A DNA stretch of 64,000 bases from an uncultured Stenotrophomonas sp. (GTDB lineage Bacteria > Pseudomonadota > Gammaproteobacteria > Xanthomonadales > Xanthomonadaceae). The stretch is taken from NCBI RefSeq assembly GCF_913778665.1, contig NZ_CAJYVQ010000012.1, positions 62,001 through 126,000 on the forward strand, in the 5' to 3' direction. Both the position numbers and the translations under genes were made by a program. Shown here piece after piece: positions 8,012 to 24,058 of the stretch. How positions within the stretch are numbered: the stretch's first letter is position 1; every line of letters starts with the position of its first letter. The notes beneath the pieces are model-generated. The model was given only the letters and a program-made list of their open reading frames with translations. It had not been told where the DNA came from and made no database searches.

Positions 8012-10699
<2,688 letters not shown>

Positions 10700-10721
10700 C
10701 GTTATCCCGACTCATCAAGTC

Positions 10722-10756
10722 AACGGGGCGGCTATAGGCCGCCCTGTTCTTTTTTA
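10722..10756 (+). terminator. Rho-independent terminator after aceE
   Basis: Inverted repeat AACGGGGCGGC / GCCGCCCTGTT around a TATAG loop, followed by CTTTTTT. It marks the left edge of the defence island. Confidence 0.88.
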
Positions 10757-10824
10757 GACTATGATTGCCGGGCGGACATCAAATCAAGTGGCCTGCGGTT
10801 TATTATCATTTACGGGATAGAAAG

Positions 10825-11931
10825 ATGGCGCGCCCCCTGCTGACTTCATTCAGAATACGCGGTTATCGTGGAATTCGCGACTTGGAAATTCCCCATCTGG
10901 GTCGCGTAAATCTAATCGTCGGTAAAAACAGTTGCGGAAAAACTAGCATACTTGAAGCAGTTCAACTTTACGCTGGAAATGCCAATTTGGGTGGTTTTTT
11001 CGCCGTAATGGCAGCCCGAAAAGAGCCAGTCAGGTTGAGGGTTCGAGACTATGATCAACTACAAGAGTTTTATCAGAGTTTTAGAAATCTCTTCTATCAA
11101 TCGATTGATGAGGAAGGTGATCCGCACTTTGTCCTGTCTTCGGCAGATGATTCTCTCCCAGAGCTTTTTGTCAATTTAACGCATATGGATCCGGGTGTTT
11201 CTGTGGAGTCTATTGGCCTCCAGAGAGACCTGATTACATTCTCGGATGATGATTTCCTTCGTGCATTTGCTCTTCACGTCAACTTCGGTTCTCGGCTTCG
11301 AACCTACCCGTTCGAGATTTCTGAAAGTTATGCGGGATCTTCGATAAAATCTGCCGACGATTTCGAATTTGATAGATCGGTATTTGTGACTTCGGCGGGA
11401 TTAAGTGAAGAACGAATGGGGCGAATGTGGGACAGCATCAGTCTGACGGACTTGGAGGAAGATGTACTATCGGCGCTCCGCTTGATTTTGCCTGGCGTCG
11501 AGCGGATCTCGTTAGTTCAGGGTGGCGGACGTGATCGTCATTTCATGATTCGCAGTAATCGGTTCCCGCGTCCGATGCCGCTTCGTGTATTGGGTGATGG
11601 TGTTGCAAGGCTAATGGGGGTTGCGCTTGCTCTTGTTAGCGCGAAGAACGGAATTCTCATTATTGATGAAATTGAGAATGGACTCCATTTCTCGGTGCAG
11701 CAATCGGTATGGAAGTTGATATTCGAGGCTGCGGCGCGATTAAATGTGCAGGTTTTTGCTGCAACTCACAGTTGGGATTGTATTAAGTCATTTGAAAGGG
11801 CGGCCTCTACCGATCAGAATGAGGATGCCTATTTGTTCCGCATCCAAGATTCGAAAAAGGGTGTAAGGATGATTACATTCAACGAGAGCGAGCTTGCAAT
11901 TGCGGCGAAGCAAGGAATCGAGGTCCGATGA
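10825..11931 (+). CDS. AAA family ATPase (OLD/AAA_15-like), probable phage-defence ATPase
   Basis: 368 residues from ATG 10825 (MARPLLTSFRIRGYRGIRDL). SMC/ABC-like ATPase of the OLD/AAA_15 type: N-terminal FRIRGYRGI strand, Walker A GKNSCGKTS (about 33-41), an inserted helical region (about 60-230), RVLGDGVARLM as the signature-like region, Walker B ILIIDEIENGLHF (about 277-289) and the switch ATHS near 313-316. The downstream TOPRIM-like gene starts 1 base after this stop, so the two are surely cotranscribed. The layout resembles PARIS (AriA/AriB) and other OLD-like split systems. Codons are clearly AT-richer than in aceE, a sign of transfer. Confidence 0.88.
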   Translation: MARPLLTSFRIRGYRGIRDLEIPHLGRVNLIVGKNSCGKTSILEAVQLYAGNANLGGFFAVMAARKEPVRLRVRDYDQLQEFYQSFRNLFYQSIDEEGDPHFVLSSADDSLPELFVNLTHMDPGVSVESIGLQRDLITFSDDDFLRAFALHVNFGSRLRTYPFEISESYAGSSIKSADDFEFDRSVFVTSAGLSEERMGRMWDSISLTDLEEDVLSALRLILPGVERISLVQGGGRDRHFMIRSNRFPRPMPLRVLGDGVARLMGVALALVSAKNGILIIDEIENGLHFSVQQSVWKLIFEAAARLNVQVFAATHSWDCIKSFERAASTDQNEDAYLFRIQDSKKGVRMITFNESELAIAAKQGIEVR

Positions 11932-11932
11932 T

Positions 11933-12553
11933 ATGGTCGATGAGCGAATTGTACTTGTAGAAGGTAATGATGATCTTCATGCGATCATTCATGTCCTATC
12001 TAAGCGCGGCGCGTTCGTGGAGGGGGAGATTAAATTTGTCGACTCAAAGGGCTGGGACAACCTTATAGCTTCAATACCCGTTAGATTGAAATCTTCATCC
12101 CATCGGGTAATAGGGATAATTGCCGACTCGGACAATGTAATTGAACAGCGTTGGTCGGATATTTGCGAAAAGCTTGAGCCTGAGGGGTTTGGTCCTTTCC
12201 CGGAGATGCCGCCAGATGGTGGGTTTGTGGCGCGGGGGGATGACAATCGGTTGGTAGCTGTTTGGCTTATGCCGAACAATAGGGATAATGGCGCCCTGGA
12301 GGATTTTCTGCTGTCACTGATTGTGCCGTCTGATCCTGTTTTGGGAAAAGCGACCAATGTGGTCGACGGTTTGGACGCTACAGAGAAGAGGTTTGGGCCA
12401 ACTGGTATCAAGAAGGCTGTTGTGCATACTTATTTGGCATGGCAGGAATCTCCGGGGCGCCCATTGGGTCTGGCGGTTAACTGTAACTACTTCGACGCTA
12501 GAGCGGCAAATGCATTGGACTTCGAAAGTTGGTATCGACAGTTAACTGTGTAG
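11933..12553 (+). CDS. DUF3226 TOPRIM-like protein, partner of the AAA ATPase
   Basis: 206 residues. N-terminal TOPRIM-like motif IVLVEGNDDLHAI (Glu at about 9, residues 5-17), then GIIADSDN (about 59-66), the expected Glu and Asp-x-Asp metal-binding positions; a KAVVHTYLAWQESPGRPLG block and a conserved FxxWYxxL-like C-terminus follow. DUF3226 proteins often sit beside AAA ATPases. By analogy with OLD nucleases and AriB (DUF4435) I infer a metal-dependent nuclease or RNase effector controlled by the ATPase. ATG 11933 lies 1 base past the ATPase stop. Base composition is AT-rich like its partner. Confidence 0.82.
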   Translation: MVDERIVLVEGNDDLHAIIHVLSKRGAFVEGEIKFVDSKGWDNLIASIPVRLKSSSHRVIGIIADSDNVIEQRWSDICEKLEPEGFGPFPEMPPDGGFVARGDDNRLVAVWLMPNNRDNGALEDFLLSLIVPSDPVLGKATNVVDGLDATEKRFGPTGIKKAVVHTYLAWQESPGRPLGLAVNCNYFDARAANALDFESWYRQLTV

Positions 12554-12783
12554 CGTTGTGTCGGCAAAGTCTGCGTTGCGACGGTGTGAGTCGATAATTG
12601 ACTTTTTGGCAGAGTTTCTCTAGACAGTTACATGTAATCGATCCCTTCTCGAGAGGCGCCAGAATGAGAAGTATTTCGGATGCTGAGGCACAGTATCTGG
12701 GGCTCCCGTGCGGAGGTAATTCGAATCCTTTTAGAATTTGCCAAAAATAGAGCTGCGCAACCGATGCAGACCTTCTGCACTGG
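12554..12783. other. Spacer between the defence pair and the IS remnant
   Basis: 230 AT-rich bases with no gene, clear terminator or repeat that I can support. Confidence 0.5.
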
Positions 12784-12847
12784 TCTAATGACCCACTGAA
12801 ATCCTGCTCAGGTGTTACTTTTTCCCAAGGGCACACCGATAAGCGAA

Positions 12848-13185
12848 ATGATGGAAGAAGAGATCAAGCGTTGGAATACCCGGCGCAAGTGGCCCTGGTT
12901 CTTGAGATCATCCAAGGCAAGGCAAGGCAAGGCAAGGCAAGGCAAGGCAAGGCCTGGGCGGCGGCGGAGGCGAGTCGAAAGTTCGATCTGACCCCGGCTG
13001 AGATCGAAGGCGGGGTCGGGGATGGCAAGCGCGGCATGGAGAATGCCCTGCGAGCCAAGGCGGAGGATGAACGCGAGCAGTGCGAGCGGCAGCTGAAGGA
13101 TTTGCAGGAGGGTTGCGGCGAGGCGGATACTGGAGATCCGAGTGCAAAAAAGCTGGCATCCCTGCTGGGAAATAACGAGAGCTGA
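12848..13185 (+). pseudogene. IS3-family transposase orfA remnant with pentanucleotide repeat
   Basis: The ATG at 12848 opens MMEEEIKRWNTRRK, then a frameshift near 12890 moves the family sequence (ALVLEIIQGK) to another frame. The (AAGGC)8 tract inserts GKARQGKARQGKAW before the helix-turn-helix EASRKFDLTPAEIEGGV. The C-terminus (KRGMENALRA, ERQLKDLQE, KKLASLLG) matches IS3 OrfA proteins. Non-functional as it stands. Confidence 0.8.
12914..12953. repeat. (AAGGC)8 pentanucleotide tandem repeat
   Basis: Eight perfect copies of AAGGC, 40 bases, inside the orfA remnant. Five-base units change the reading frame with each copy gained or lost, as in phase-variable tracts, although the host gene here is already broken. 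Confidence 0.93.
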
Positions 13186-13229
13186 TGCTCTCGGTCTAGC
13201 AGGACCTTAAAGTTGGGGGTGTCGCCGCA

Positions 13230-14004
13230 TTGATGACCAAGCTGTGTCAGTGGTTTGATGTGTCACGTCGAACGACGTACTACAAACCGACCAAGGGCGC
13301 CGCGAAGTTCAAGGCCGAGTTGGCTGAGTCGATCAGGGAGGTGATCGAGGCCGAGCCATCATTCGGCTACCGTACTGTGGCCGCGCTGCTGGGCATGAAC
13401 AAGAACACCGTCCAGCGGGTTTTCCAACTTAAGGGCTGGCATGTGCGCAATAGCCTGCTTGGCCAGCGCCCGCGGATGGAAGTGGCGGTTTCTCGCGCCG
13501 AAGGGCTGGATCAGCGTTGGGCCACCGACCCTGTGCCGAGTCTGAGGCGGCAAGGACGGTTGGCTGAGCCTGGCGCTTGTACTCGACTGCGGGACGCGAC
13601 AACGGCTTGGCTGGCATCTGTCGCAAACCGGCAAGGCCAGGAGCGCATCGATCGCGCTGGAACAAGCTCTCATCGCACGCTACGGCACGTGCTACCGCCT
13701 TTTGCTGCGCTCGGACAACGGCCTGATGTTGACCAGTCGCGACTATACGCGACTGGTGCGACGCTATGGCCTGAAGTAGGAGTTCATACCCCGCACTGCC
13801 CGCAGTAGAACGAGATGTTGGAGCGAGTCATCCGGATGCTGAAGAAGCAATGCATACACCGGCATCGTTTCGAGAGCCAGGTACACGCCACACGGGTGAT
13901 TGCTGACCGGATCGCCTTCTACAACCAATAGCGCCCTCATCAGGCCCCGAAGATGATCGCTCCAGATGCGGCCTATGCCGCTACATTAACCGCCAGACCT
14001 GAGC
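13230..14004 (+). pseudogene. IS3-family transposase orfB remnant
   Basis: Begins MMTKLCQWFDVSRRTTYYKPTKG and continues with PSFGYRTVAALLGMNKNTVQRVFQLKGW and QRWATD, then a frameshift near 13530 moves the DDE integrase core. In other frames the core still reads SDNGLMLTSRDYTRLVRRYG (near 13710) and, with stops, the ERVIR and NQ.RPHQ-like end. Several internal stops make it inactive. Confidence 0.85.
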
Positions 14005-14045
14005 AGAAACCGGTGGGTCATTACACACTCTTGCAGTCCATCAAT

Positions 14046-14909
14046 TCACACGGCCAGATCCAATGGCAAGTCTGAAATATCTCGTAGGCGCTTTCCTTCG
14101 ATCAAGATGTCAAGCATTTCTTTTGCATCGGGAAAATCCAACTCCTCGACTGCAAGTATTAGCTCATTTAAGGCAAAATGGTAGGTGCAGTCTATATCTC
14201 CTGTGCCGAGTGCGATCGAGGCGATTCGGCTGGGACTCGGTTCTGCAGTTACCACCACCGCATGCGGCAGTCTTCCCTTACGGTTCCTTATGAGATTGAG
14301 TGCTTCGGAGCGTGCATTCTGAGCTCTGTCACTGCGCAGCGTCCATTTGCAGGAAATGCTTGCATGCAGTATCGGCAGGCCTCCATTAGCGCCTCTCAAG
14401 GAGGCTCGCTGAGCAGTAGAGGAGTCAACGATGAAGTTGCTAGAATTTATAGCGTGGTCATCGATCAATCTGCGCGAGACTATGATGTCAGGGGTAATCG
14501 TGTAGTCGTTACCCAGTGCCGCCGCCAACTCGCGATTGCCCTTTGCTGCCCGATCAAGAGCGATCAGGTGCGAATATTGGTCAAAGCTCGCAATCAATCG
14601 CCTGTTTCTGCCGCCAACCTGTTGAACGAGCCAATCGCCCGGCCTGATATGATCAAGCTGGCCAAAAGTGTTGAGAACAAAGCTTGCACAAGCGCCCTCA
14701 AAATTAGCGCCGGAGGTTTGCGCGGCTGCTCGCTCGCTCATTACCTGGACGCGAAGTTGAGTGGCTATATGTCTGGCAATTTCTCTGCTTACACGACTAT
14801 CCTTATCGGCGTTGGAATGAATGCCATTTTTGTCAATAGTGAGCGTGCCTTCTAGAAGCGAGGCGTGAAACTTCTTGCGCTCTAAGAGAAATAGGGCTTC
14901 TCCACTCAT
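14046..14909 (-). CDS. NgoMIV-family type II restriction endonuclease, predicted GCCGGC
   Basis: 287 residues, against 286 for NgoMIV. Start ATG 14907-14909 overlaps the methyltransferase stop (ATGA). Every functional residue known for NgoMIV is present, shifted by one: Glu71 (NFEGA), Asp141 (TITPDIIV), Ser186-Cys187-Lys188 (ASISCKW) and Glu202 for catalysis, and Arg192-Ser-Asp194-Arg195 plus Gln64 for base recognition. HIRPGDW and the final DISDLPLDLAV also match. NgoMIV is a tetramer that cuts G^CCGGC at two sites together. The same specificity is therefore predicted. It is cotranscribed after the C5-methyltransferase on the minus strand. Confidence 0.93.
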   Translation of the reverse strand: MSGEALFLLERKKFHASLLEGTLTIDKNGIHSNADKDSRVSREIARHIATQLRVQVMSERAAAQTSGANFEGACASFVLNTFGQLDHIRPGDWLVQQVGGRNRRLIASFDQYSHLIALDRAAKGNRELAAALGNDYTITPDIIVSRRLIDDHAINSSNFIVDSSTAQRASLRGANGGLPILHASISCKWTLRSDRAQNARSEALNLIRNRKGRLPHAVVVTAEPSPSRIASIALGTGDIDCTYHFALNELILAVEELDFPDAKEMLDILIEGKRLRDISDLPLDLAV

Positions 14910-15862
14910 GCTACTTTGAAAATTCGCTGCTGGGAAAGTGCGCCAAAAATGCGAGAAGCTACTGCCGCGGCCACGGGCGGGGGAAATGCGTTGCCAATCT
15001 GCCGGTAAGCTGCGGTCTTTCTCCCTGCAAACTCCCATGCATCCGGAAAACCCTGGATACGAGCGGTCATCCGAGGCGTGAGTCGCGGCATGCCAACGAA
15101 ATCAGTTTCAGGTGCCTGGTCCCATAGGCCCATTCCATCAACTCCAAGCGCAGCCCAGGCCTTCTTGGCGCGAGTTGGTCCAAGGTCTGGACCTCCGTGC
15201 TTTTTAGAACCACCGACCAAAGTGGGGGCAATCGCATTCGCTCCCTCCCGCCATGCGTCAACTTGATCCCAGCCTCGCGCGCCCATCAAGTCGTGCAGGA
15301 GCTGACCTACCGTCTTTGGGGGCTCTTTCAATGCTTCTGGCCATGAGAATGCGGAAGCAAGCTCCTTTCTCATGCCGACAAATATGACGCGAGGCCGAAG
15401 CTGCGAGACGCCATAGTCGGATGCATGAAGAAGTCGCCAATCGCCCCAGTAGCCCAGCTTCTTGAGTTCTTCCTCGACGCCCTTCCGATAATCATCGAAC
15501 TTAGGATCGAGCAGTCCTCGGACATTTTCGAGCATGATTGCTTGAGGTCTTACCTGATCAACAATTCGAATTGCCTCGGGGAATAGGTCGCGCTCATCGT
15601 CAGCACCAAGCTGCTTTCCTGCCTTAGAGAAAGGAGGGCAAGGCACGCCGCCGGCAACGAGATCCACACCCTTGTATGGGGATGCGTCGAATTCGCGAAG
15701 GTCACCCTCAATCACGTTCCAGCTCGGGCGGTTCAAGCGGAGCGTCTGGCATGCAGCCGGCTCCCATTCCACGAGCGCAGAGTGGTCGAAGCCGGCCATC
15801 TCTAGGCCAAGGCCTTGTCCGCCAGCACCGGCGCACATCTCAAGGGAGGTGAATTGACTCAT
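14906..15862 (-). CDS. C5-cytosine DNA methyltransferase of the GCCGGC system
   Basis: 318 residues with the motifs of m5C methyltransferases in order: motif I SLEMCAGAGGQGLGLEMAGF, motif IV GGVPCPPFSKAG with the catalytic Cys (about 75), motif VI MLENVRGL, motif VIII QLRPRVIFVGM, a target-recognition region around 185-265, and motif X RQIGNAFPPPVAAAVASRI. Its stop overlaps the NgoMIV-type nuclease start by 4 bases, which ties it to that enzyme. The only other restriction gene of the same predicted specificity, the NaeI-type, lies 400 bases upstream on the same strand. It should protect GCCGGC by cytosine-5 methylation; the target is inferred from the nucleases. Confidence 0.92.
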   Translation of the reverse strand: MSQFTSLEMCAGAGGQGLGLEMAGFDHSALVEWEPAACQTLRLNRPSWNVIEGDLREFDASPYKGVDLVAGGVPCPPFSKAGKQLGADDERDLFPEAIRIVDQVRPQAIMLENVRGLLDPKFDDYRKGVEEELKKLGYWGDWRLLHASDYGVSQLRPRVIFVGMRKELASAFSWPEALKEPPKTVGQLLHDLMGARGWDQVDAWREGANAIAPTLVGGSKKHGGPDLGPTRAKKAWAALGVDGMGLWDQAPETDFVGMPRLTPRMTARIQGFPDAWEFAGRKTAAYRQIGNAFPPPVAAAVASRIFGALSQQRIFKVA

Positions 15863-16264
15863 GTAGATCTCAGATCAGAAAGGAGCCCGGTAGGAGGGGG
15901 TCGCGCTGGCTACAGCGCGAGCTCCTTAGAGCACCAGGTGTTGGGTGGGGGCGGTGGGGTCAGCAAGTACACGCTGGCGCCGTATCAGATGCTGAGACTA
16001 GGGCAGGCGTGCCCCTAAGCCGCATGACAGTGCGTGGCGTGTCCAGATGCCTGGATTCCCCTTCTCTGGCAACTGCCAGCGTACCAAGCCTGATCGCTAG
16101 TGCAAGTGTTTGGAGTTCAGGGCGCTTGGGACGCGATCCCTGCAGGTCAATTTCGCCAAATCGCTTCCGAGATCCGCGAGATGTCAAGGCCCGGGCTGGC
16201 CCATTGCGTAACGCAGTCAACCGAGTCCTGGAAGCTGCTGGCTGTGAGCCTCTATAGCAGAGCC
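15863..16264. other. Spacer between methyltransferase and NaeI-type gene, with a hairpin
   Basis: 402 bases without a gene I can support. A perfect 7-bp hairpin CGCGCTG / CAGCGCG sits at 15902-15919, 40 bases ahead of the methyltransferase start, and could be an operator or attenuator. A minus-strand reading frame at 15960-16220 has no family likeness. Confidence 0.45.
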
Positions 16265-17083
16265 TTAAGGGCTATCAGAGATCCTGAGGCTCAACCATTC
16301 ATCTTTGGCTGCAGGGGTGAAGCCGTGGGCGATCATGATCTCGCGGTCAGCGAGATAGGTGGCACAAAGGACCTGGTAGCCCTCCCTACCCAGCGTTTCC
16401 TTCATCTCGCGAGCCCGCTTCACCGCATCCCTTTGCTGTGCCAACTGTTCGATGACATCCCGCGGGATGAGAAGGCCCGTGGCCATGGTGAAGAGCGCGC
16501 GCACTCGCTGCCGCCCACTAGGCTGGGCCAAGATTGCCGAGCGCACCACTTCAGGGAGATCCAGCATGAAGTTCCTGGGCATCGGACCTTCCACAAGCCA
16601 TCGAATCTGCGCCTTACCGGCAGCGGAGATGGACTTCTTCCCGTCTCTGTTCTGGCTATTGGTCAGTACTGCCGGGGTCATTCTCAATAGGCCGAGCCAG
16701 CAAAGCCCCTTCACATCGTCCGCGCGGACAAGCATGCAAAGCTGCCCAACCGCCTCCTGCGGGATCATCCAATCGTTCTTGACTGTGAATTTGGTATCAA
16801 CCTCGTGGCCGGCAATTAGATTGTCCAATAAGACTCCTCGCTCCAGGGCCAAGGCTTTGCGGAGCAGGATCTCGACCTTTGTGCCGATGTAGGTCTTTTC
16901 TGTTTTCTCTAGCTGATCAATGCAAAATCGCCCCGTACGGGGCGCGTCAATCACTTCGTCGAACGCCGTGCGGAGCGCTTGCCCCACCTTGCTCAGCAGA
17001 GCAGGGTCGCGTGAGAGCGCAGCGGCAACCTGCTCTAGAGCGGGGTCATCCAGCTGCGGAACTTGTGGAAAAAGGCCATTCAT
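16265..17083 (-). CDS. NaeI-family type II restriction endonuclease, predicted GCCGGC
   Basis: 272 residues, somewhat shorter than NaeI (317). The NaeI catalytic residues are all present, shifted by one: Glu71 (TKVEILLRK), Asp87 (LLDNLIAG), Asp96 and Lys98 (HEVDTKF). The flanking RTGRF, QLEKTEKTYIGT, NDWMIPQEAVGQLCMLV and CWLGLLRM blocks match as well. NaeI cuts GCC^GGC as an allosteric two-site enzyme; its Leu43, the position where Lys makes it a topoisomerase, is Val44 here. The C-terminal CAP-like domain is shortened. It lies upstream of the methyltransferase and downstream of vsr, all on the minus strand. No second methyltransferase is present. Confidence 0.88.
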   Translation of the reverse strand: MNGLFPQVPQLDDPALEQVAAALSRDPALLSKVGQALRTAFDEVIDAPRTGRFCIDQLEKTEKTYIGTKVEILLRKALALERGVLLDNLIAGHEVDTKFTVKNDWMIPQEAVGQLCMLVRADDVKGLCWLGLLRMTPAVLTNSQNRDGKKSISAAGKAQIRWLVEGPMPRNFMLDLPEVVRSAILAQPSGRQRVRALFTMATGLLIPRDVIEQLAQQRDAVKRAREMKETLGREGYQVLCATYLADREIMIAHGFTPAAKDEWLSLRISDSP

Positions 17084-17177
17084 TGAGCCCTTCTATCACA
17101 ACGCGGGCAATTTACGTAAGGTTATGCCGTGTCCGGCCCATAGTTAGCCGCTGCCCTATTCTCGTGATCCTGATGTG

Positions 17178-17597
17178 TCAGTTGGGCCGCAACAATCTGA
17201 CTATGCGATCGATCTCTTGGGCTCGGTCCGCTTCCCGCTTGATCTTGCACTCCCAAACAGTAATCACCTTCCAGCCTGCGGCCCTTAAGCGGCGCGCTGA
17301 CCTACGGTCGCGTCGGACATTCGCTTCCAGCTTGGGCGACCAGTAGCGCGGGTTAGTTCCCGGTCTCCTTCCGTTCAAGCAACTGTGCAGATGCCAAAAG
17401 CAGCCATGCACGAAGATGACGGTTCTGTACTTCGGTAGCACGATATCTGGTCGTCCAGGAAGCCCGCTTCCTCCCAGCACATACCGAAAACCTCGAGCAT
17501 GCATAGCTTTGCGTAGCAACAGCTCAGGTTTGGTATCTGAGCTGCGAATCCTGGACATTCGTTCGCTTCGTGCTTCAGGGCTAAGAATGTCGGGCAT
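17178..17597 (-). CDS. vsr: Very short patch repair endonuclease Vsr
   Basis: 139 residues. Family motifs: MSRIRSSDTKPELLLRKAMHARGFRY, GRPDIVLPKYRTVIFVHGCFWH, NPRYWSPKLEANVRRD, and GWKVITVWECKI. Glu25, Asp51, His64 and His69 fall at the same positions as the catalytic residues of E. coli Vsr. Vsr nicks 5' of T in T:G mismatches left when 5-methylcytosine deaminates, so it protects a genome that carries a C5-methyltransferase. It sits 94 bases upstream of the NaeI-type gene in the same restriction cluster, fitting repair of methylated GCCGGC sites. Confidence 0.95.
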   Translation of the reverse strand: MPDILSPEARSERMSRIRSSDTKPELLLRKAMHARGFRYVLGGSGLPGRPDIVLPKYRTVIFVHGCFWHLHSCLNGRRPGTNPRYWSPKLEANVRRDRRSARRLRAAGWKVITVWECKIKREADRAQEIDRIVRLLRPN

Positions 17598-17693
17598 CGT
17601 CCTGCCTCGGGTCTTCTGAGATAAAGCACACTCTCGCTTATTTCAGCTCTCGGTAGATAGCAAGTGAACGTTCCATTGGTCCCGCACTGCTTC

Positions 17694-18461
17694 CTACCAC
17701 TGGCACTGCGATCGATGCCAACTGATTGATTCCTGGCAGGCTGACAGCTCAGACGACATGGGAATGCCCAACTCACGGCCATCCAACTCGAAGTAGGTTG
17801 ATTGCTGGAGAGCAGGCGCCACGGCGATCCGCAGAGAACCGGGGTTGATGGCTATCAGATATAAATCGAACAGAGTGTGCACATCGGCACGGAGCAAAAG
17901 ACCGTTCCTGACATTGTTGCTCTTTAGGCCTGAGTAGGGCTGGATATGGGCCGCCTCAAGCGCATCGACCACATTGCACCCCGTCATAGCACAGCAACCG
18001 CCGTACGCCTCCAGTAGTGCCTTACGGAACGCAGGCTGTCCGCGGCGCCGAACAATAGCCGCGAGCACACGCTGCCTTTGGTCAACCTCGTCTGTTGGGG
18101 AGAAACTGCCAGATGCTTCCGCGGCTTTAGTCTCCTGCTCCAACAGTTCCCTTGTGGCACCGGAGACCGATGTGAGCGCCTCGCCAGAAAGCCCAAGGAG
18201 CTTGGCAAGTTTCGGCTCAACATTCGCACCTACGTTCGAAGCTGGAAGAAGCCCGGGTAGCCACGGCTTGCCTGCCTGATCCAGAACATGGGAGATGTTC
18301 TGCATGCGGTACTCCCACGCCTTGACTGTACGTCCGTGGCGATCCGCGAGTTCCCGATAGACCCTGGCCTTCTCAAGGCCTGATCCATTGGCGAGACGCG
18401 CCTCCATTTGGCGATACGCCTCAACGGCAGCAGCCAATTCGTCTTCAGTCCACCTGCTCAC
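17694..18461 (-). CDS. HNH endonuclease, restriction-cluster member
   Basis: 255 residues from a GTG at 18459-18461, chosen because GGGGAA lies 4 bases upstream; an ATG at 18522-18524 has no ribosome site. The N-terminus is helical (RWTEDELAAAVEAYRQMEARL, RELADRHGRTVKAWEYRMQNI), like the DNA-binding arm of other HNH_2 enzymes. The C-terminal HNH fold is complete: CAMTGCNVVDALEAAHIQPY, then NNVRNGLLLRADVHTLFDL, with the conserved His, Asn and His. The family includes modification-dependent nucleases. Position beside vsr suggests a nuclease of the same defence cluster, but the substrate is unknown. Confidence 0.85.
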   Translation of the reverse strand: MSRWTEDELAAAVEAYRQMEARLANGSGLEKARVYRELADRHGRTVKAWEYRMQNISHVLDQAGKPWLPGLLPASNVGANVEPKLAKLLGLSGEALTSVSGATRELLEQETKAAEASGSFSPTDEVDQRQRVLAAIVRRRGQPAFRKALLEAYGGCCAMTGCNVVDALEAAHIQPYSGLKSNNVRNGLLLRADVHTLFDLYLIAINPGSLRIAVAPALQQSTYFELDGRELGIPMSSELSACQESISWHRSQCQW

Positions 18462-18628
18462 AGTCTTCCCCTGTCCCTGGCAGCACGAGGCGCCCTGGGG
18501 GAAGTATGCCGTAAACGACATCATGAGCCGCTAACGGCCTTGGCTGGAAGAGCGTAGCTTGTCAGCGCAAACCGCCGACTACTCAGGCCTTACGGTAGAT
18601 CTGGAGCGTGGATTCGAGTAGCGGTGCT

Positions 18629-18985
18629 CTAATCGCCTGGGAGTAGCCGGCTACTCCAACGCTGGAGCAGAGGCTGAGCGCAGGGCTTCTCAGGGGTCCG
18701 GCTAATGAGGCCGATGATGAGTAGCTGTGATGACGAGTTGTCCACCAGCAGAACGGGCTCACCTCGGCAGGTGAGTACGAAGTACTTGGCTGCGAACCGT
18801 CCGGCTCCGAGCGCTACATCTTCGGTCACTAGACGTTGGGCTTCCTCCCGCATTACTGCAAACTCGGCATCTGAAACTCTGGGGAAGGTTCCTATCTCAA
18901 GCCCGCCTTTGGGCAGATCCAGGTAGACGAGCGCGGAACCAATCAGCGCTGCCAAAAACAGTAGTGCGTACGTCAGAGACTTCAT
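18629..18985 (-). CDS. Hypothetical membrane-anchored or secreted protein
   Basis: 118 residues with an N-terminal hydrophobic segment (MKSLTYALLFLAALIGSALVYLDL) that is a signal peptide or anchor. AGGA lies 7 bases before the ATG. The remainder (EFAVMREEAQRLVTEDVALGAGRFAAKYFVLTCRGEPVLLVDN) shows no motif I know. Its 3' end overlaps the palindrome at 18640-18657. Probably not part of the defence cluster. Confidence 0.6.
   Translation of the reverse strand: MKSLTYALLFLAALIGSALVYLDLPKGGLEIGTFPRVSDAEFAVMREEAQRLVTEDVALGAGRFAAKYFVLTCRGEPVLLVDNSSSQLLIIGLISRTPEKPCAQPLLQRWSSRLLPGD
18640..18657. repeat. Perfect 18-bp palindrome GGAGTAGCCGGCTACTCC
   Basis: Perfect palindrome centred on a GCCGGC site, within the 3' end of the 18629-18985 gene. 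It resembles a short GTAG-headed REP unit folded on itself. Confidence 0.7.
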
Positions 18986-19072
18986 CTGGAAGTCCTGTAG
19001 ATCAGGGCCGAGTGGAGAATGGGGTCGCGATGACAGCCCGCAGCTAAGTACTAGAGGTTCAGACCTCTGGTC

Positions 19073-19447
19073 CTACTCCCGCACCTGCAACCGCTCAGCC
19101 ACCTGCGCAGTCAACGCCACACAGGCCATCTTCAGCCCTTCCATAATCCGATCCCCCAGATATTCCTCGGGCGCACCGTTCTGCCGCGTCCGCTCCGCAG
19201 CCAGCATCAGCTCCGCCACCACGCGCAGCCCGGCCACCGCGCAGTCCGCATCCGCCAGCTGAAGACAACGCCCAGGCAATTGATGTCGTTCCGGCCAAGG
19301 CTGACCATCCGCTGCCGCACCGGTTCCGATGCGATGCAAGGTGGCGACGAAGGAGTTGGGATCGGTGGACGGTTCGCGCTCGGCGTCGCCGTCGGTGTTG
19401 TCAGGATCGTACTGCGCGTGCAGGGAACGGAAATCCGATGTGTTCAT
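19073..19447 (-). CDS. Hypothetical small acidic protein downstream of a structured leader
   Basis: 124 residues from ATG 19445-19447 (MNTSDFRSLHAQYDPDNTDG). N-terminal third is disordered and acidic; the rest is helical with Cys residues (GRCLQLADADCAVAGLRVVAELMLAAERTRQ, IMEGLKMACVALTAQVAERL). I do not recognise the family with certainty; layout and composition recall the small DUF3077/DUF6124-type proteins of pseudomonads. A longer in-frame start would cross the inverted repeat structure at 19478-19680 and is rejected. The long structured leader makes post-transcriptional control plausible. Confidence 0.65.
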   Translation of the reverse strand: MNTSDFRSLHAQYDPDNTDGDAEREPSTDPNSFVATLHRIGTGAAADGQPWPERHQLPGRCLQLADADCAVAGLRVVAELMLAAERTRQNGAPEEYLGDRIMEGLKMACVALTAQVAERLQVRE

Positions 19448-19477
19448 GGCAATGCTCCGTACAGGACAGATAGCAGC

Positions 19478-19680
19478 GCCACCGATAAAGGTGGCGGACG
19501 GTGCGGGCTCGAAAACCGGTAAATGCCAGACCGGCGGGCCCGAAGGCCCCCACGCACCGCCCGCCATGGAACGCGAACGGATTGCCAGTCGGCGTCACCC
19601 GAAGGTGACGCCGACTGACAAGCGTATACAGCTGGCATAAACACGGGTTTTCGAGTCCCGCGCCACCCTTTTCCGGTGGC
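19478..19680. repeat. Large inverted-repeat structure upstream of a small gene
   Basis: Two related units face each other. The right-hand unit, read on the minus strand from 19680, gives a GCCACC/GGTGGC hairpin, CTCGAAAACC, then ATGCCAGC, then a 14-bp perfect stem (19586-19599 / 19604-19617, loop CGAA). The left-hand unit, read on the plus strand from 19478, gives the same GCCACC/GGTGGC hairpin (19478-19495), CTCGAAAACC, ATGCCAGA and a GGCGGGCC CGAA stem. The conserved order of elements suggests a defined repeat family or RNA motif, not chance. Confidence 0.75.
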
Positions 19681-19898
19681 ACGCCAAGAGATACCCGCGC
19701 AGCTGCCAAATGCCAAGAAACTGCAGAACCGACGATCGTCAGTCCTGACGCTTTCGGCATTGTCGCACACGGTGTTAAGCCCGCAAGCGATTGCGCCGCA
19801 AGGGTCTTGAAGGGCCTGGCGCTATTGGCCCCAACCGCGGGAGCGCCCCCAACCAGGGCAATCGTGTAGGGCCACTTACGACAGGCTGGACCAGCGGT
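19681..19898. other. Spacer with no feature seen
   Basis: About 220 bases between the inverted-repeat structure and the TonB-like gene. No gene, terminator or repeat found. Confidence 0.4.
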
Positions 19899-20324
19899 TC
19901 AGATAGCAGGCGACTCGGCCGAGGGTGAGAAGGTCAGACGTACCCGAACCCGCGCATGCCGCGCGACGCCCTCAACCAAGACCGGTTCGAAGCGCCATTC
20001 GTCCACAGCGGTAAAGGCCGCACGATCAAACTCCCGCAGCCCACTCGACCGCACCACCATCACGTTGGAAACGTGGCCCAGCTCATCCAGTTGAGCAACC
20101 AACAACACCACCATCGGCGCCTGCAGCAAGGTATCAGGTGGCGTGACCGGGGCCGTTGAATGCACAACAGCAGGTGCCTGCCGCAGTTCGAAGGCGGGGT
20201 TGTCTCCGGTCTCTACAAACACCTCGGTGGAAACGCACGGATCTGCGACCATGGCCGACGCAGGTATAGCGCCCAGCAACATCAAAGCGAGATTCACTGC
20301 CAGGGCAGCGTTCAAAAGAGGCAT
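19899..20324 (-). CDS. TonB C-terminal domain (energy transducer-like) periplasmic protein
   Basis: 141 residues. Signal peptide MPLLNAALAVNLALMLLGAIPASA, then a short linker, then a TonB-like C-terminal domain: VVLLVAQLDELGHVSNVMVVRSSGLREFDRAAFTAVDEWRFEPVLVEGV, the usual ...V..SSG...D.AA..A...WRF.P pattern. It has a cleavable signal instead of the TonB anchor and no Pro-rich span, so it is a periplasmic TonB_C-domain protein and not a true TonB. It is a single gene, divergent from the YncE-like gene at 20552. Role unknown. Confidence 0.75.
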   Translation of the reverse strand: MPLLNAALAVNLALMLLGAIPASAMVADPCVSTEVFVETGDNPAFELRQAPAVVHSTAPVTPPDTLLQAPMVVLLVAQLDELGHVSNVMVVRSSGLREFDRAAFTAVDEWRFEPVLVEGVARHARVRVRLTFSPSAESPAI

Positions 20325-20551
20325 GCGTGGTTTCCATTCCGGTGCGCATCATAACGTCCGTTCCCGCGCGGTGATCTGAATGCCGAATCCGCGCGTCCAC
20401 CATACGCGCACAAGCGCACGCCATGCCCCCCACCTGCTACCATTCCCCCCGCTAACCCAGCCAGCCTTTCCGTGCGCGCACGCCGGAACGGCCGTCTTCG
20501 TACGGCCCAGCGAGCCAGGACACCCTCCCGTGCCCTTTCAAGGATGCTCGC

Positions 20552-21709
20552 ATGTTCCGTCATTCCGCTCTCCGCTCGGCCGCCCTGGCCCTTGCCGTCT
20601 CGCTCAGCCTCGGCGCGCCCGCCGCCTTCGCCGATAACGCACCCGCTGCCAGCGCCACCACCGCCGTGCAGCGCCAGGCCGTGGCCAAGGGCCTGTACGA
20701 GCTGGCCTACAGCCCGAAACAGAACGCCGTGTTCGTCGCCTCGTCCGGCGGCTTCGGCGATGACGCCGGCCCGGCCCAGGTGCTGCGTCTGAACCCGGCC
20801 ACGCTGGCCGTGGAAACCCGCATCCCGCTGGAGCGCAAGGCCTTCGGCGTGGTACTGGATGACGCCCACAACCGCCTGTACGTGGGCAACACCGTGGACC
20901 TGTCGGTGACCGTGGTCGACACCGCGCAGAACAAGGCCATCGGCACCATCCAGCTGATGGAAAAGAAGACCGGCAAGGACGGCAAGGCCGCCTACACCCA
21001 CGACCTGCGCGAGCTGGTGGTCGACAGCGCCGCCAACCGCCTGTACGTGACCGGCCACAGCAGCCAGCCGGATGTGAGCAGCGTGCTGTTCGTGATCGAT
21101 ACCACCACGCAGAAGGTGATCAACACCATCGACGGCCTGGGCAACGCCAAGGCGCCGGGTCTGGCGCTGGATGCGGCCAACAAGCGCGTCTACACCAGCA
21201 ACCTGCTGGCCGACCTGGTGGTGGTGGGCACCGATTCGAACAAGGTAGTGGCCCAGCACAAGATTGCCGCCGAGCAGCCGATGAACATCGCGCTGGACCC
21301 GGCCGGCAAGCGCCTGTTCGTGACCGACCAGGGCTCGGAATTCCTGCGCGGCTACCAGGCCAAGAGCAGCGGCCTGGTCAGCAAGCACCCGGGCCAGCGC
21401 GTGCTGGTGCTGGACCGCAGCACCGGCAAGGAACTGGCCAGCATCCCCACCGACGCCGGCCCGCTGGGCATCCTGCTGGACGCACCGCGCAAGCGCCTGT
21501 ACGTGACCAACCGCGAAGCCGGTACAGTGACCGCGTACAACAGTGACAGCTACAAGAAGGTGGCCACCTACACCGTGCCGACCCATCCGAACAGCCTGGC
21601 GCTGGATGCGAAGAACAACGTGTTGTTCGTGAGCATCAAGAACGGCGAGAAGGATGCCAAGGACGCAAACGAGAGCGTGGCGCGGATTCAGTTGCAAGTG
21701 CCCCGCTGA
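20552..21709 (+). CDS. YncE-family secreted beta-propeller protein
   Basis: 385 residues. Signal peptide ending ...GAPAAFA near residue 27. The rest is a seven-bladed propeller of YVTN-type repeats, for example NRLYVGNTVDLSVTVVDTAQN, NRLYVTGHSSQPDVSSVLFVID, KRVYTSNLLADLVVVGTDSNKVV and KRLYVTNREAGTVTAYNSDSYK. E. coli YncE is a periplasmic, iron-regulated propeller that binds single-stranded DNA; the physiological role of the family is unclear. A terminator follows at 21733-21762. The upstream region (20325-20551) has no clear operator. Confidence 0.88.
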   Translation: MFRHSALRSAALALAVSLSLGAPAAFADNAPAASATTAVQRQAVAKGLYELAYSPKQNAVFVASSGGFGDDAGPAQVLRLNPATLAVETRIPLERKAFGVVLDDAHNRLYVGNTVDLSVTVVDTAQNKAIGTIQLMEKKTGKDGKAAYTHDLRELVVDSAANRLYVTGHSSQPDVSSVLFVIDTTTQKVINTIDGLGNAKAPGLALDAANKRVYTSNLLADLVVVGTDSNKVVAQHKIAAEQPMNIALDPAGKRLFVTDQGSEFLRGYQAKSSGLVSKHPGQRVLVLDRSTGKELASIPTDAGPLGILLDAPRKRLYVTNREAGTVTAYNSDSYKKVATYTVPTHPNSLALDAKNNVLFVSIKNGEKDAKDANESVARIQLQVPR

Positions 21710-21732
21710 CGGCCGGCGCGATCTGCCAGGCA

Positions 21733-21762
21733 GCGAGCACCGATGATCCGGTGCTCGCCTTT
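21733..21762 (+). terminator. Terminator after the YncE-like gene
   Basis: Perfect 10-bp stem GCGAGCACCG / CGGTGCTCGC (21733-21742, 21749-21758), loop ATGATC, followed by CTTT. It lies between convergent genes and could serve both. Confidence 0.65.
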
Positions 21763-21776
21763 GCGCGACGGGCTTT

Positions 21777-23030
21777 CTACTTGGGCTTGATGCCCTGATC
21801 GGGTAATGCTTCATCGGAGAGTGCGCACTGTATCGTAGGTGGCTCCCGCTTGACGTCGGCACCCTTCTTGTCGCGAGGCGTGCTGAACCATCCTCGGATC
21901 TCTGTAGCGGGAATCGCCACGGACGGGGAGGGCGTTTGAGGCCTCCACTCCAGATCGGTGATCAGCACGTGGCTTCCCAGCCGAGTGAGGATCTGGACAT
22001 TCTTCAGGCACAGAAGATTCCCTGATTCACCCGTCACAGCCCCACACTTCGTTGCAACGCCTGAAAGACGCGCAAGGTCGCAGCCCAGAGGCGTCACCAG
22101 GACATCCTGTCCCTTCAGCATGCCGAGCCGGAACTTTGCAGCCGCCAAGTCGCTGATGGCGAACGCGGCGCCAGTGAAGAAGACGATATAGAGGCCCATG
22201 ACAACCAGCGCCGTAGTGCGCACCATAAGCCCGCTACTCTGTAGCGCATACGTGAAAACGTGGAGTGCCGGAAGCGCCAGCAGCAAGAAAAGATTCGCTG
22301 AGCTTTGACTGCTCTCGACACCCTTCAAGAGTACCCATCCAACAAGGAGGATGACCGGGATCACGAACCCGTACAGCGAAACGCACAGCCAGAAGTACTT
22401 CGCCCAGCGGTTGCGGCGGCGTTCTTTTCGGGCGTGGAAGGTTGCGGGGGCGCTTCTTGCAATCCCGAAGCAAAGCCCAGTACCCGAGATCAACAATGCA
22501 ATGCCCGTTGCAATGGCGGACCAGTTCTCCGGAAGCTCAACACTCCAAAGTGCCCACCACATTGCCGCAGCGACCAGGAATCCTCCGTACGCGATCAGCA
22601 ATGTCGGTTGCATGGCTTTCGCGACCAGATTCGGGGCATGTGACTTCGCGAATGGCCGATGGCAGCAGGCGCATGGAGAGCGGGCAGATCTGCGGCGCCG
22701 TGCTCTTAGGCGGTTGGAGGGAGCCCTGGGAATAAATTCCGCCGTGGACCATGCCACGAAACAAAGCGCGGGTCCCATGACCACGAATAGGAAGAAAACC
22801 ACTGCAACGAATGAGAAGAAGGCCGTTGCAGCCGCGACCAGGCCTACATCGGCTACCGTGACCTGCGGCAGGTAGCCAATTCTCCAGAAGTGAACGACTA
22901 CGCCGATGACACCTGCGGCGGCAAAGAGCCATTTGTGATCGCTGACGAACTTCAGCGAGGACTTCACCAGGGCAACGAAGTCGACATTGTCACCGATGGG
23001 GCCAGACTTGCTAGTGGAGGATCCTGACAT
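21777..23030 (-). CDS. Hypothetical multi-pass membrane protein
   Basis: 417 residues from ATG 23028-23030 with AAGGAGT 6 bases upstream; the upstream in-frame extension is rejected. Probable membrane helices near residues 35-55, 62-90 (ADVGLVAAATAFFSFVAVVFFLFVVMGPALCFVAW), 141-160, 169-187, 210-232, 243-260 and 268-290, then a soluble C-terminal domain of about 125 residues. A basic Cys-rich loop (RARRRRSARSPCACCHRPF) lies between helices and could bind a metal. I do not recognise the family. Codon use is less GC-biased than neighbours, so it may be acquired. Confidence 0.7.
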   Translation of the reverse strand: MSGSSTSKSGPIGDNVDFVALVKSSLKFVSDHKWLFAAAGVIGVVVHFWRIGYLPQVTVADVGLVAAATAFFSFVAVVFFLFVVMGPALCFVAWSTAEFIPRAPSNRLRARRRRSARSPCACCHRPFAKSHAPNLVAKAMQPTLLIAYGGFLVAAAMWWALWSVELPENWSAIATGIALLISGTGLCFGIARSAPATFHARKERRRNRWAKYFWLCVSLYGFVIPVILLVGWVLLKGVESSQSSANLFLLLALPALHVFTYALQSSGLMVRTTALVVMGLYIVFFTGAAFAISDLAAAKFRLGMLKGQDVLVTPLGCDLARLSGVATKCGAVTGESGNLLCLKNVQILTRLGSHVLITDLEWRPQTPSPSVAIPATEIRGWFSTPRDKKGADVKREPPTIQCALSDEALPDQGIKPK

Positions 23031-23359
23031 TTGCACTCCTTGCGTGGATACAGACTCTCTCGCCATTGGACGAGCATTCCTATGCAAGAGTAGCGGCCCG
23101 CGTGATGCGATCTTGAGGTGGATTTGATCGGGAGACTAGTCGTATGAATCTGCAATGGCGCGTCTGCAACTATCAGGCTGCCGTGCTGGGCGCACGTGCA
23201 GGTACGACGAACTGCTGGCTGCCGCCCTATCGAGAATCGCTCCATGTCAGGTCGTGTTCGGCGCAGCTCTGGAGAGCACGCACGACAGGCAAGTGCCGAA
23301 TGACGCGCAGTTGAGCAAGCAGCCGAGCGTGGGCTCGGCTCTACAGGATGCGGCGCCCC
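23031..23359. other. Spacer, with a decayed REP-like palindrome
   Basis: About 330 bases without a gene. Near 23325-23345 a GAGCG..GGCTCGGCTCTACAG stretch resembles the tail of a REP unit. Otherwise nothing is seen. Confidence 0.4.
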
Positions 23360-23839
23360 TCAATCCGCCGCCCGATGGTCATAGCTGATCACCCGTTCCA
23401 CCTGCCACTGCCCATCCACCCGCCGCCAGACCTGGACGAAGCGCGCCTGCCCGGTCCAGCGCTCCACGCCCTTCGCATCGCGCTCGTGAAAGCGGTGATC
23501 GCCGATCTCCAGCGCCCGCTCGTCGTGCAGCGGAAACACCTGCAACGAGCTCTCCACCAGTTCGCGGCGCAGATGCGTGTGGTTGGCGCGGTTGCCTTCG
23601 CATAGTGCCACCACGCTACGGCGGAAGTCGTCGCGGTTGCTGGCGGACTTGCCGGCCTTGTCATGGAAGAACTCCATGTCTTCGGTGGTCATCGATGCGG
23701 CCTTGTCGGCATCGCAGGCGTCGAATGCGGCGGCGAACAGCTGCGTATCCGCCTGACGGATCTGTTCGCGCAGGGTGTCTGGCGCGGTCGGGGCGGCGGC
23801 GAGGCCGGCGGCCAGCAGGGGCAGGGTGAGCAGCAGCAT
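23360..23839 (-). CDS. Secreted NTF2-like (DUF4440/SnoaL) protein
   Basis: 159 residues from ATG 23837-23839; a signal peptide (MLLLTLPLLAAGLAAAPTAP) decides the start. The mature part has the DUF4440/NTF2 pattern: ADTQLFAAAFDACDADKAASMTTEDMEFFHDKAG (about 30-64), DDFRRSVVALC, then strands ending RFVQVWRRVDGQWQVERVISYDH, which is the standard C-terminal strand. Such domains bind small ligands or act as weak enzymes; no substrate can be read. It is divergent from the alpha/beta hydrolase gene at 24059. Confidence 0.8.
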   Translation of the reverse strand: MLLLTLPLLAAGLAAAPTAPDTLREQIRQADTQLFAAAFDACDADKAASMTTEDMEFFHDKAGKSASNRDDFRRSVVALCEGNRANHTHLRRELVESSLQVFPLHDERALEIGDHRFHERDAKGVERWTGQARFVQVWRRVDGQWQVERVISYDHRAAD

Positions 23840-24058
23840 GGCGAATCTCCCGGAAGTGGTCCACGCAGGTTGGCACGGCCCGCTGCGCCCCGCTGCCATG
23901 CTGCGACGAAACCGCCGCCGGGCGCGATGAAACATGGTTTTGGCGGCACGGCCGGGCGCCCCCCTGTGCACGCCATGTCACAGCGCGCCGCGATTCCCTC
24001 ACGGGCGGCATAGGGATGGGGCTCTAGCCTGCAACTCTACCCTTCCACTGGAGCCCCC

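What the first reader, a model, noticed from the sequence alone, without database searches (positions are those of the whole stretch)
14046..18461. Two unrelated GCCGGC nucleases sharing one C5-methyltransferase, with Vsr and HNH
An NgoMIV-type nuclease (14046-14909) and a NaeI-type nuclease (16265-17083) flank a single m5C methyltransferase (14906-15862). Both keep their family's catalytic residues, and the NgoMIV copy also keeps all base-recognition residues, each at the family position plus one. NgoMIV cuts G^CCGGC and NaeI cuts GCC^GGC, so the locus would carry two neoschizomers of different fold and different end type. Vsr and an HNH nuclease complete the cluster. I do not recall a described locus of this type. 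Both enzymes need two sites, which could give a layered block against phages that escape one enzyme.
Basis: partly seen in the sequence, partly recalled or inferred. Interest (0 to 1): 0.88.

Follow-up and report, generated by a model that had tools for sequence, protein, structure and literature searches.

The report
Two GCCGGC nucleases, one methyltransferase
A bacterial DNA-defence locus carries two differently built cutting enzymes that very probably cut the same six-letter DNA word at different places, guarded by one shared protective enzyme; similar pairings turn up in other bacteria, so the combination looks like a recurring design.

Summary
The window holds an NgoMIV-family nuclease (PF09015, 6.6e-122), one m5C methyltransferase, a NaeI-family nuclease (PF09126, 2.9e-65) and a Vsr, all on the minus strand, catalytic residues kept. 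The genome has one PF00145 methyltransferase and no PF01555 one. Shared GCCGGC specificity is inferred: stand-alone NaeI and stand-alone NgoMIV systems both occur with each of three deep methyltransferase clades, and the window enzyme is 69% identical to the methyltransferase beside R.NgoMIV. The pairing is not unique: two sister species carry it at the same site, and 10 of the 80 NaeI genome loci kept have an adjacent NgoMIV homologue, those ten all Actinomycetota. Trees require several separate changes between paired and single. HNH is a neighbour, not a part. NgoMIV is frameshifted in one sister and split in one Streptomyces pair, so redundancy or turnover is a live rival. A side result: among 36 NgoMIV rows checked, the E202Q form occurs only beside a second nuclease of these two families. 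No paper seen describes such a locus; searches are named in the report.

The parts
14046..14909 (-). NgoMIV-family (type IIF-like) restriction endonuclease, 287 aa, canonical catalytic and recognition residues
   Evidence: PF09015 406 bits; PDB 1fiu E 1e-107; residue check
14906..15862 (-). C5-cytosine DNA methyltransferase, 318 aa; its stop overlaps the NgoMIV start (ATGA); the only PF00145 match in the genome
   Evidence: PF00145 241 bits; own-genome search; junction; 69% identical to the methyltransferase beside R.NgoMIV
15863..16264 (.). 402-bp gap between methyltransferase start and NaeI stop; no ORF there matched the five window proteins; may hold the promoter of methyltransferase-NgoMIV (inference; a consensus scan found no sigma-70-like site)
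   Evidence: (L005)
16265..17083 (-). NaeI-family (type IIE-like) restriction endonuclease, 272 aa, catalytic residues kept
   Evidence: PF09126 221 bits; model pLDDT 94 matching 1iaw, TMq 0.87
17178..17597 (-). Vsr mismatch endonuclease, usual companion of m5C methyltransferases
   Evidence: PF03852 and TIGR00632 above cut-off
17694..18524 (-). HNH_2 nuclease; neighbour, not part of the R-M unit
   Evidence: PF13391; present in the same region without NaeI/NgoMIV in L174 and L176, split by a stop in L186

Best explanation
This is a type II restriction-modification locus in which one m5C methyltransferase protects GCCGGC sites against two endonucleases of different PD-(D/E)XK branches: an NgoMIV-type enzyme (G^CCGGC, tetramer cutting two sites together) whose gene overlaps the methyltransferase gene, and a NaeI-type enzyme (GCC^GGC, activated by a second site) carried with Vsr just upstream. 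The methyltransferase marks host sites, Vsr repairs T:G mismatches from deaminated m5C, and unmodified incoming DNA is open to both nucleases. Shown: gene content, catalytic residues, one cytosine methyltransferase of the two families searched, the same methyltransferase clades serving each nuclease family elsewhere, synonymous-biased change in NaeI and the methyltransferase among sister species. Inferred: cutting specificity and positions, expression, and that the second nuclease pays its way by making restriction harder to escape. Once a GCCGGC methyltransferase is present, a second nuclease of that specificity is already tolerated, which would explain why the pairing was assembled more than once.
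For: Families, residues and fold. One PF00145 and no PF01555 match in the genome. Methyltransferase tree of 104 rows: each of three deep clades holds NaeI-only and NgoMIV-only loci; 'both' needs 8 changes, at least 7 forced by starred branches. Within the window's clade the target-recognition core is nearly identical in NaeI-linked, NgoMIV-linked and gonococcal NgoMIV methyltransferases. 10 of the 80 NaeI genome loci kept carry an adjacent PF09015 gene above cut-off. In 373 Actinomycetes genomes (paired centre left out) 11 have PF09015, 24 PF09126, 4 both against 0.7 expected, Fisher p 0.003, relatedness not corrected; 3 of the 4 on one contig within 3 kb. In a Streptomyces sample both other PF09015 genomes (2 of 2) also have NaeI within 5 kb. 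Sister species: dN/dS of NaeI 0.04-0.09 and of the methyltransferase 0.04-0.08 over three comparisons.
Against: No cleavage, methylation or expression data. NgoMIV is frameshifted in sister species G900 while NaeI is intact, and in the Streptomyces pair L244 it is split over two frames. In G816 the two families lie on different contigs, each beside its own methyltransferase, and 3 of 16 paired loci show two methyltransferases. GCCGGC is not depleted in the window (155 seen, 157 expected from its pentamers), so no trace of self-attack. NgoMIV synonymous sites are saturated or nearly so in all three comparisons, so its selection is poorly measured. 0 of 52 NgoMIV loci on viral contigs have a detected NaeI.
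Confidence: 0.72

Rival explanations
1. Turnover intermediate: two separate R-M units with the same specificity merged, one methyltransferase was lost or replaced, and one nuclease is now redundant and on its way out. The pairing gives no combined benefit.
For: NgoMIV broken in G900 and L244; mosaic divergence, with NaeI dS 0.09-0.20, methyltransferase 0.66-0.89 and NgoMIV saturated against the sisters; changeable gene orders in Actinomycetota; NaeI itself departs from the consensus in L154.
Against: Both genes open in window and G941; NaeI changes are strongly synonymous-biased; pairing is more frequent than expected in Actinomycetes.
Confidence: 0.2
2. Division of labour: the window NaeI-type enzyme has drifted to another target or substrate (related sequence, hemimethylated or mismatched DNA) and is not a true neoschizomer.
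For: 35% identity to NaeI in the structural alignment and a shorter C-terminus; no biochemical test.
Against: NaeI-family genes sit beside the same methyltransferase clades as NgoMIV; catalytic residues kept.
Confidence: 0.06
3. Chance neighbours in a defence island, with no functional link.
For: The stretch downstream of aceE holds different genes in relatives.
Against: Both families are rare yet adjacent in three species of the window genus and in 10 of the 80 NaeI loci kept, usually with one methyltransferase.
Confidence: 0.02

Closest known systems
NgoMIV restriction-modification system (Neisseria gonorrhoeae, L161)
   Same: PF09015-type nuclease next to an m5C methyltransferase of the same clade (69% identical methyltransferase); the L161 nuclease looks the same as 1fiu by eye
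   Different: No NaeI found beside it, nor in the NgoMIV-only loci L008-L011, L157-L159
NaeI restriction-modification systems (e.g. Loktanella plasmid L006, Rhodococcus opacus plasmid L007)
   Same: PF09126-type nuclease, sometimes with Vsr (22 of 75 NaeI-only loci), next to a methyltransferase of the same clade
   Different: No NgoMIV; the nearest NaeI relatives of the window lineage (L012, L013, L092-L094) are NaeI-only
Actinomycetota NaeI + NgoMIV loci (L027, L030, L042, L045, L050, L051, L054, L068, L071, L089, L146, L153, L154, L244, L245)
   Same: Both nuclease families in one locus, mostly with one methyltransferase and Vsr
   Different: Other gene orders; in 11 of the first 13 another methyltransferase clade; in 8 of the first 13 an NgoMIV homologue with E202 changed to Q
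Neoschizomer pairs such as SmaI/XmaI (PMC4081073, passage)
   Same: Same sequence, different cut position
   Different: As far as I recall those come from different organisms with their own methyltransferases

Membership tests
NgoMIV-type type II restriction endonuclease | PF09015 over the curated cut-off, full length | tested here: met
   406 bits vs 23.2; profile 1-275 of 275
NgoMIV-type type II restriction endonuclease | Catalytic D, S-x-K, E and the R-x-DR recognition motif (roles recalled) | tested here: met
   D141, S186, K188, E202, R192, D194, R195
NgoMIV-type type II restriction endonuclease | Cuts G^CCGGC as a tetramer on two sites | not testable with these tools
   needs enzymology
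NaeI-type type II restriction endonuclease | PF09126 over the curated cut-off; NaeI fold | tested here: met
   221 bits vs 25; 1iaw TMq 0.87 over 268 columns
NaeI-type type II restriction endonuclease | Catalytic E, D, D, K (roles recalled) | tested here: met
   E71, D87, D96, K98
NaeI-type type II restriction endonuclease | Cuts GCC^GGC with an allosteric second site | not testable with these tools
   needs enzymology
Type II R-M system with cognate GCCGGC methyltransferase | Adjacent m5C methyltransferase of the NgoMIV/NaeI clades | tested here: met
   tree and recognition-domain comparison
Type II R-M system with cognate GCCGGC methyltransferase | No second methyltransferase that could protect one enzyme alone | tested here: met
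   1 PF00145, 0 PF01555 in a 99.96% complete genome; other cytosine methyltransferase families not searched
Type II R-M system with cognate GCCGGC methyltransferase | Methyltransferase modifies GCCGGC and blocks both nucleases | not testable with these tools
   needs methylome or cleavage data
Druantia-type DruM system | Large Druantia helicase (DruE) beside the DruM-like methyltransferase | tested here: not met
   PADLOC DruM models match the methyltransferase strongly, but no ORF of DruE size (size recalled) overlaps 9000-24000; the longest is aceE, 903 aa

The most novel reading that the evidence does not exclude
Two-nuclease R-M loci are a distinct, repeatedly selected architecture in which the NaeI- and NgoMIV-type enzymes work as a functional pair (sequential or mutually activating cutting of the same sites with two end types). 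In Actinomycetota the partner NgoMIV homologue has become an obligate accessory: the E202Q/R228M form is found in 8 of 16 paired loci, and its one other occurrence among the 36 rows checked (L151) lies next to a canonical NgoMIV, so it was never seen as the only nuclease of a locus.
Probability: 0.15. Interest if true: 0.8.

Novelty: new variant of a known kind. Interest (0 to 1): 0.62.

Why it matters
The usual type II system has one nuclease and its methyltransferase (recalled). Here two nucleases of different evolutionary branches, with different expected ends and different two-site mechanisms, sit behind one methyltransferase, and the arrangement recurs in two phyla. If both cut GCCGGC, the locus makes directly testable whether redundant nucleases raise the barrier to phage escape and anti-restriction, and shows that a methyltransferase specificity can act as a platform onto which unlike nucleases are added or swapped.

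Tried and rejected
HNH as part of the unit: rejected, because it occurs in this region without the nucleases (L174, L176) and is split in L186; it also showed no meaningful similarity to the HNH ORF beside R. opacus NaeI.

Site avoidance as evidence of activity: no depletion of GCCGGC; the excess over dinucleotide shuffles (155 vs 92) vanishes against the pentamer-based expectation of 157. Three GCCGGC sites early in the methyltransferase gene are shared with both sisters, but the 5' end of the gene is close to identical among them anyway, and the six other methyltransferase genes checked have none or one.

Druantia: DruM profiles are the best PADLOC matches of the methyltransferase, read as common m5C-methyltransferase ancestry.

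Promoter and terminator scans gave nothing above shuffles, and repeats showed no clear island borders. NaeI in phage records: none. Naming the species from the plasmid collection failed; GC and genome size suggest a Stenotrophomonas-like member of the Xanthomonadaceae, untested.
Full report
WHAT IS THERE. On the minus strand the order of transcription is HNH (18524-17694), Vsr (17597-17178), NaeI (17083-16265), methyltransferase (15862-14906), NgoMIV (14909-14046). Pfam assigns PF13391, PF03852, PF09126, PF00145 and PF09015, all above the curated cut-offs. NgoMIV aligns with solved NgoMIV over residues 3-286 of 286 (1fiu, E 1e-107). NaeI aligns to solved NaeI over residues 13-226 by sequence, and its AlphaFold2 model (39-row alignment, mean pLDDT 94.2) matches the NaeI-DNA complex 1iaw over 268 columns, TMq 0.87, 35% identity; the only other matches at E 0.001 or better are the two NaeI chains of 1ev7. 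The C-terminus is shorter than in NaeI. Methyltransferase and NgoMIV overlap in ATGA; a 402-bp gap separates NaeI from the methyltransferase. GC is 49-58% in the 2-kb windows between 10 and 19 kb, and 55% over 10765-18524 against 67% in the rest of the window, so the region is probably acquired.

RESIDUES. In the window NaeI keeps E71, D87, D96, K98; NgoMIV keeps D35, E71, D141, S186, K188, R192, D194, R195, E202. Which of these are catalytic or base-reading in the type enzymes is recalled, not taken from a call. The two enzymes lie on opposite branches (alpha and beta) of the PD-(D/E)XK superfamily; NgoMIV is type IIF with cut G|CCGGC, NaeI type IIE (passages of PMC4081073; the NaeI site is printed there as GCC|CCG, so GCC^GGC is recalled).

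ONE METHYLTRANSFERASE. The window's genome (4.4 Mb, 14 contigs, 99.96% complete) has exactly one PF00145 match and no PF01555 match. GCCGGC has no adenine, so adenine methyltransferases cannot protect it. Other cytosine methyltransferase families were not searched.

SAME SPECIFICITY, BY PARTNER SWAPPING. I collected NaeI loci (a capped candidate list from genome contigs, 168 relatives confirmed, the best 80 kept; 3 viral contigs; 2 plasmids) and NgoMIV loci (of 16 plasmid records with NgoMIV I fetched 5). Of 109 loci, 75 were NaeI-only, 19 NgoMIV-only and 15 both, the window coming on top; the 19 include two repeats (L158, L159) and two fragments from one genome (L155, L156). A tree of 104 methyltransferases (quick method; long-branch warnings printed) has three deep clades; each holds NaeI-only and NgoMIV-only loci, and two hold paired loci. 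One clade has only three rows, and its NgoMIV row (L150, genome G816) comes from a genome that also has NaeI on another contig. The window enzyme is 69% identical to the methyltransferase next to R.NgoMIV in N. gonorrhoeae, 65-82% to those of four other NgoMIV-only loci, and 57-77% to those of six NaeI-only loci; the core IAPTLVGGSKKHGG.DLGPTR of the recognition domain varies little among them. That comparison covers the window's clade only; the actinobacterial methyltransferases of L010 and L011 are 31-32% identical to the window's. Partner swapping is the main reason to believe that both nucleases read GCCGGC. For a plasmid NgoMIV relative (pLM16A1, 68% identical to R.NgoMIV) the authors also predict GCCGGC (passage of PMC4447125); that is a prediction, not a test.

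HOW COMMON IS THE PAIR. PF09015 is above cut-off in 3 of 369 genomes of the class and PF09126 in 1 of 369, the window's own counted in each. In the family sample PF09015 is in 2 of 149 and PF09126 above cut-off in 1 of 149. In the genus 3 of 91 genomes match the NgoMIV-methyltransferase-NaeI DNA. Elsewhere, 10 of the 80 NaeI genome loci have a PF09015 ORF near NaeI; all ten pass the Pfam cut-off (73-182 bits) and all ten are Actinomycetota. A look at 374 Actinomycetes genomes, one of them the paired centre, gave PF09015 in 12, PF09126 in 25 and both in 5; without the centre 11, 24 and 4 of 373, against 0.7 expected, Fisher p 0.003 (relatedness not corrected). In 3 of those 4 the genes are neighbours (G598, G686, G760); in G816 they lie on different contigs, each beside its own methyltransferase. 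In 100 Streptomyces genomes PF09015 occurs in 3, one being the centre; the other two carry NaeI as well, adjacent in L244 and 4.5 kb away in L245. Against this, 0 of 52 NgoMIV loci on viral contigs have a detected NaeI (some contigs are short, and many loci are near-copies: 30 distinct C-terminal stretches among 53 ORFs), and none of the 16 plasmid records with NgoMIV is among the 2 with NaeI. Of 16 paired loci (window included) 13 show one methyltransferase of the kinds sought, 3 show two, and 14 have Vsr (plus the window's own genes).

ORIGINS. The label 'both' needs at least 7 changes forced by starred branches on the methyltransferase tree, 6 on a 62-row NaeI tree and 4 on a 34-row NgoMIV tree; changes may be gains or losses. 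The window and its two sisters form one lineage in each of the three trees, apart from the actinobacterial pairs, so the pairing probably arose more than once.

SISTER SPECIES. G941 (L186) and G900 (L187) carry NgoMIV, methyltransferase, NaeI, Vsr and HNH at the same place beside aceE. Identity to the window: NaeI 96% and 99%, Vsr 94% and 97%, methyltransferase 93% and 93%, NgoMIV 71% (one open frame) and 74% over the 238 aligned residues of the downstream frame (frameshifted). Synonymous divergence rises along the locus: NaeI dS 0.20 and 0.09, methyltransferase 0.89 and 0.66, NgoMIV saturated. The NaeI-Vsr side was therefore probably exchanged recently, while the three NgoMIV genes are old alleles of one clade (support 95, starred). 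dN/dS over the three comparisons is 0.04-0.09 for NaeI, 0.04-0.08 for the methyltransferase and 0.06-0.27 for Vsr; for NgoMIV it can be computed only between the two sisters (0.03, at dS 2.4, so unsafe). HNH is open in G900 and split by a stop in G941, and it occurs in the same region without either nuclease in G902 and G897, so it is a neighbour.

MECHANISM. Likely: the methyltransferase marks GCCGGC, Vsr repairs T:G mismatches left by m5C deamination, and unmodified DNA entering the cell faces a tetrameric enzyme giving 4-base 5' ends and an allosteric enzyme giving blunt ends. A second nuclease of the same specificity is tolerated once the methyltransferase is present, so adding one should be easy; whether it is beneficial is open. 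NgoMIV is the member seen broken (G900; L244, split over two frames); NaeI departs from its consensus in one pair, L154.

A SIDE RESULT. In 8 of 16 paired loci, all eight Actinomycetota, the NgoMIV homologue has Q for E202 and M for R228; in NgoMIV-only loci this holds for 1 of 20 rows, and that row (L151 8767-9672) is next to a canonical NgoMIV copy (9656-10468) (Fisher p 0.005, or 0.007 with repeats and the fragment removed; relatedness not corrected, and the nine Q rows form one clade). On viral contigs a pattern check read E in 45 of 52 loci, nothing in 7 and Q in none. Q in place of E does not by itself mean inactivity: BtgZI is described with such a change in its PD-D/EXK domain (passage of PMC4081073). 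In L154 NaeI also departs (Q71, E96).

LITERATURE. Searches: NaeI+NgoMIV+GCCGGC (1 paper); two restriction endonucleases+neoschizomer+methyltransferase (1); NaeI+NgoMIV+restriction-modification (7); a six-term search on two nucleases and one methyltransferase (5); 'NaeI family' or 'NgoMIV family' (2); same recognition sequence / two REases (24, 20 listed); GCCGGC+methyltransferase+Stenotrophomonas (1); NaeI+very short patch repair+restriction-modification (2). I read passages of four (PMC4081073, PMC4447125, PMC4176335, PMC548270) and only listings of the rest; nothing I saw describes such a locus. A survey notes that occurrences were merged where two REase genes belonged to one system (passage of PMC4176335), so such loci may have been counted without comment. 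REBASE was not available.

Noticed in passing
window 10825-12553: AAA_15-type ATPase followed by a DUF3226 protein, matching PADLOC candidate defence pair PDC-M38A/PDC-M38B; no DNA match to this stretch at the same place in the two sister species.
   Followed up: partly
window 10700-14045; L178 1189-2885: The stretch downstream of aceE looks like a variable defence spot: in G900 it holds a DUF262-like and a HEPN-like ORF (by eye), in other relatives other methyltransferase, HNH or Vsr ORFs within 15 kb.
   Followed up: partly
window 13230-13808: Remnant of an IS3-family transposase (NF033516, below cut-off).
   Followed up: no
window 12913-12952: Short tandem CAAGG repeat array.
   Followed up: no
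L151 8767-10468: Two different NgoMIV-family nucleases side by side with one methyltransferase and Vsr, one canonical and one of the E202Q type.
   Followed up: partly
L154 9919-13057: Paired locus in which both nucleases depart from the consensus: NaeI with Q71 and E96, NgoMIV with Q202.
   Followed up: no
L046 6654-12426: Streptomyces locus with two NaeI-family genes and two methyltransferases that have different best matches.
   Followed up: no
L012 4664-5602: NaeI relative 65% identical to the window's with no methyltransferase match on its 9.8-kb contig.
   Followed up: no
L245 9298-15611: Streptomyces genome with canonical NgoMIV and NaeI 4.5 kb apart, methyltransferase and Vsr beside NaeI.
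   Followed up: no
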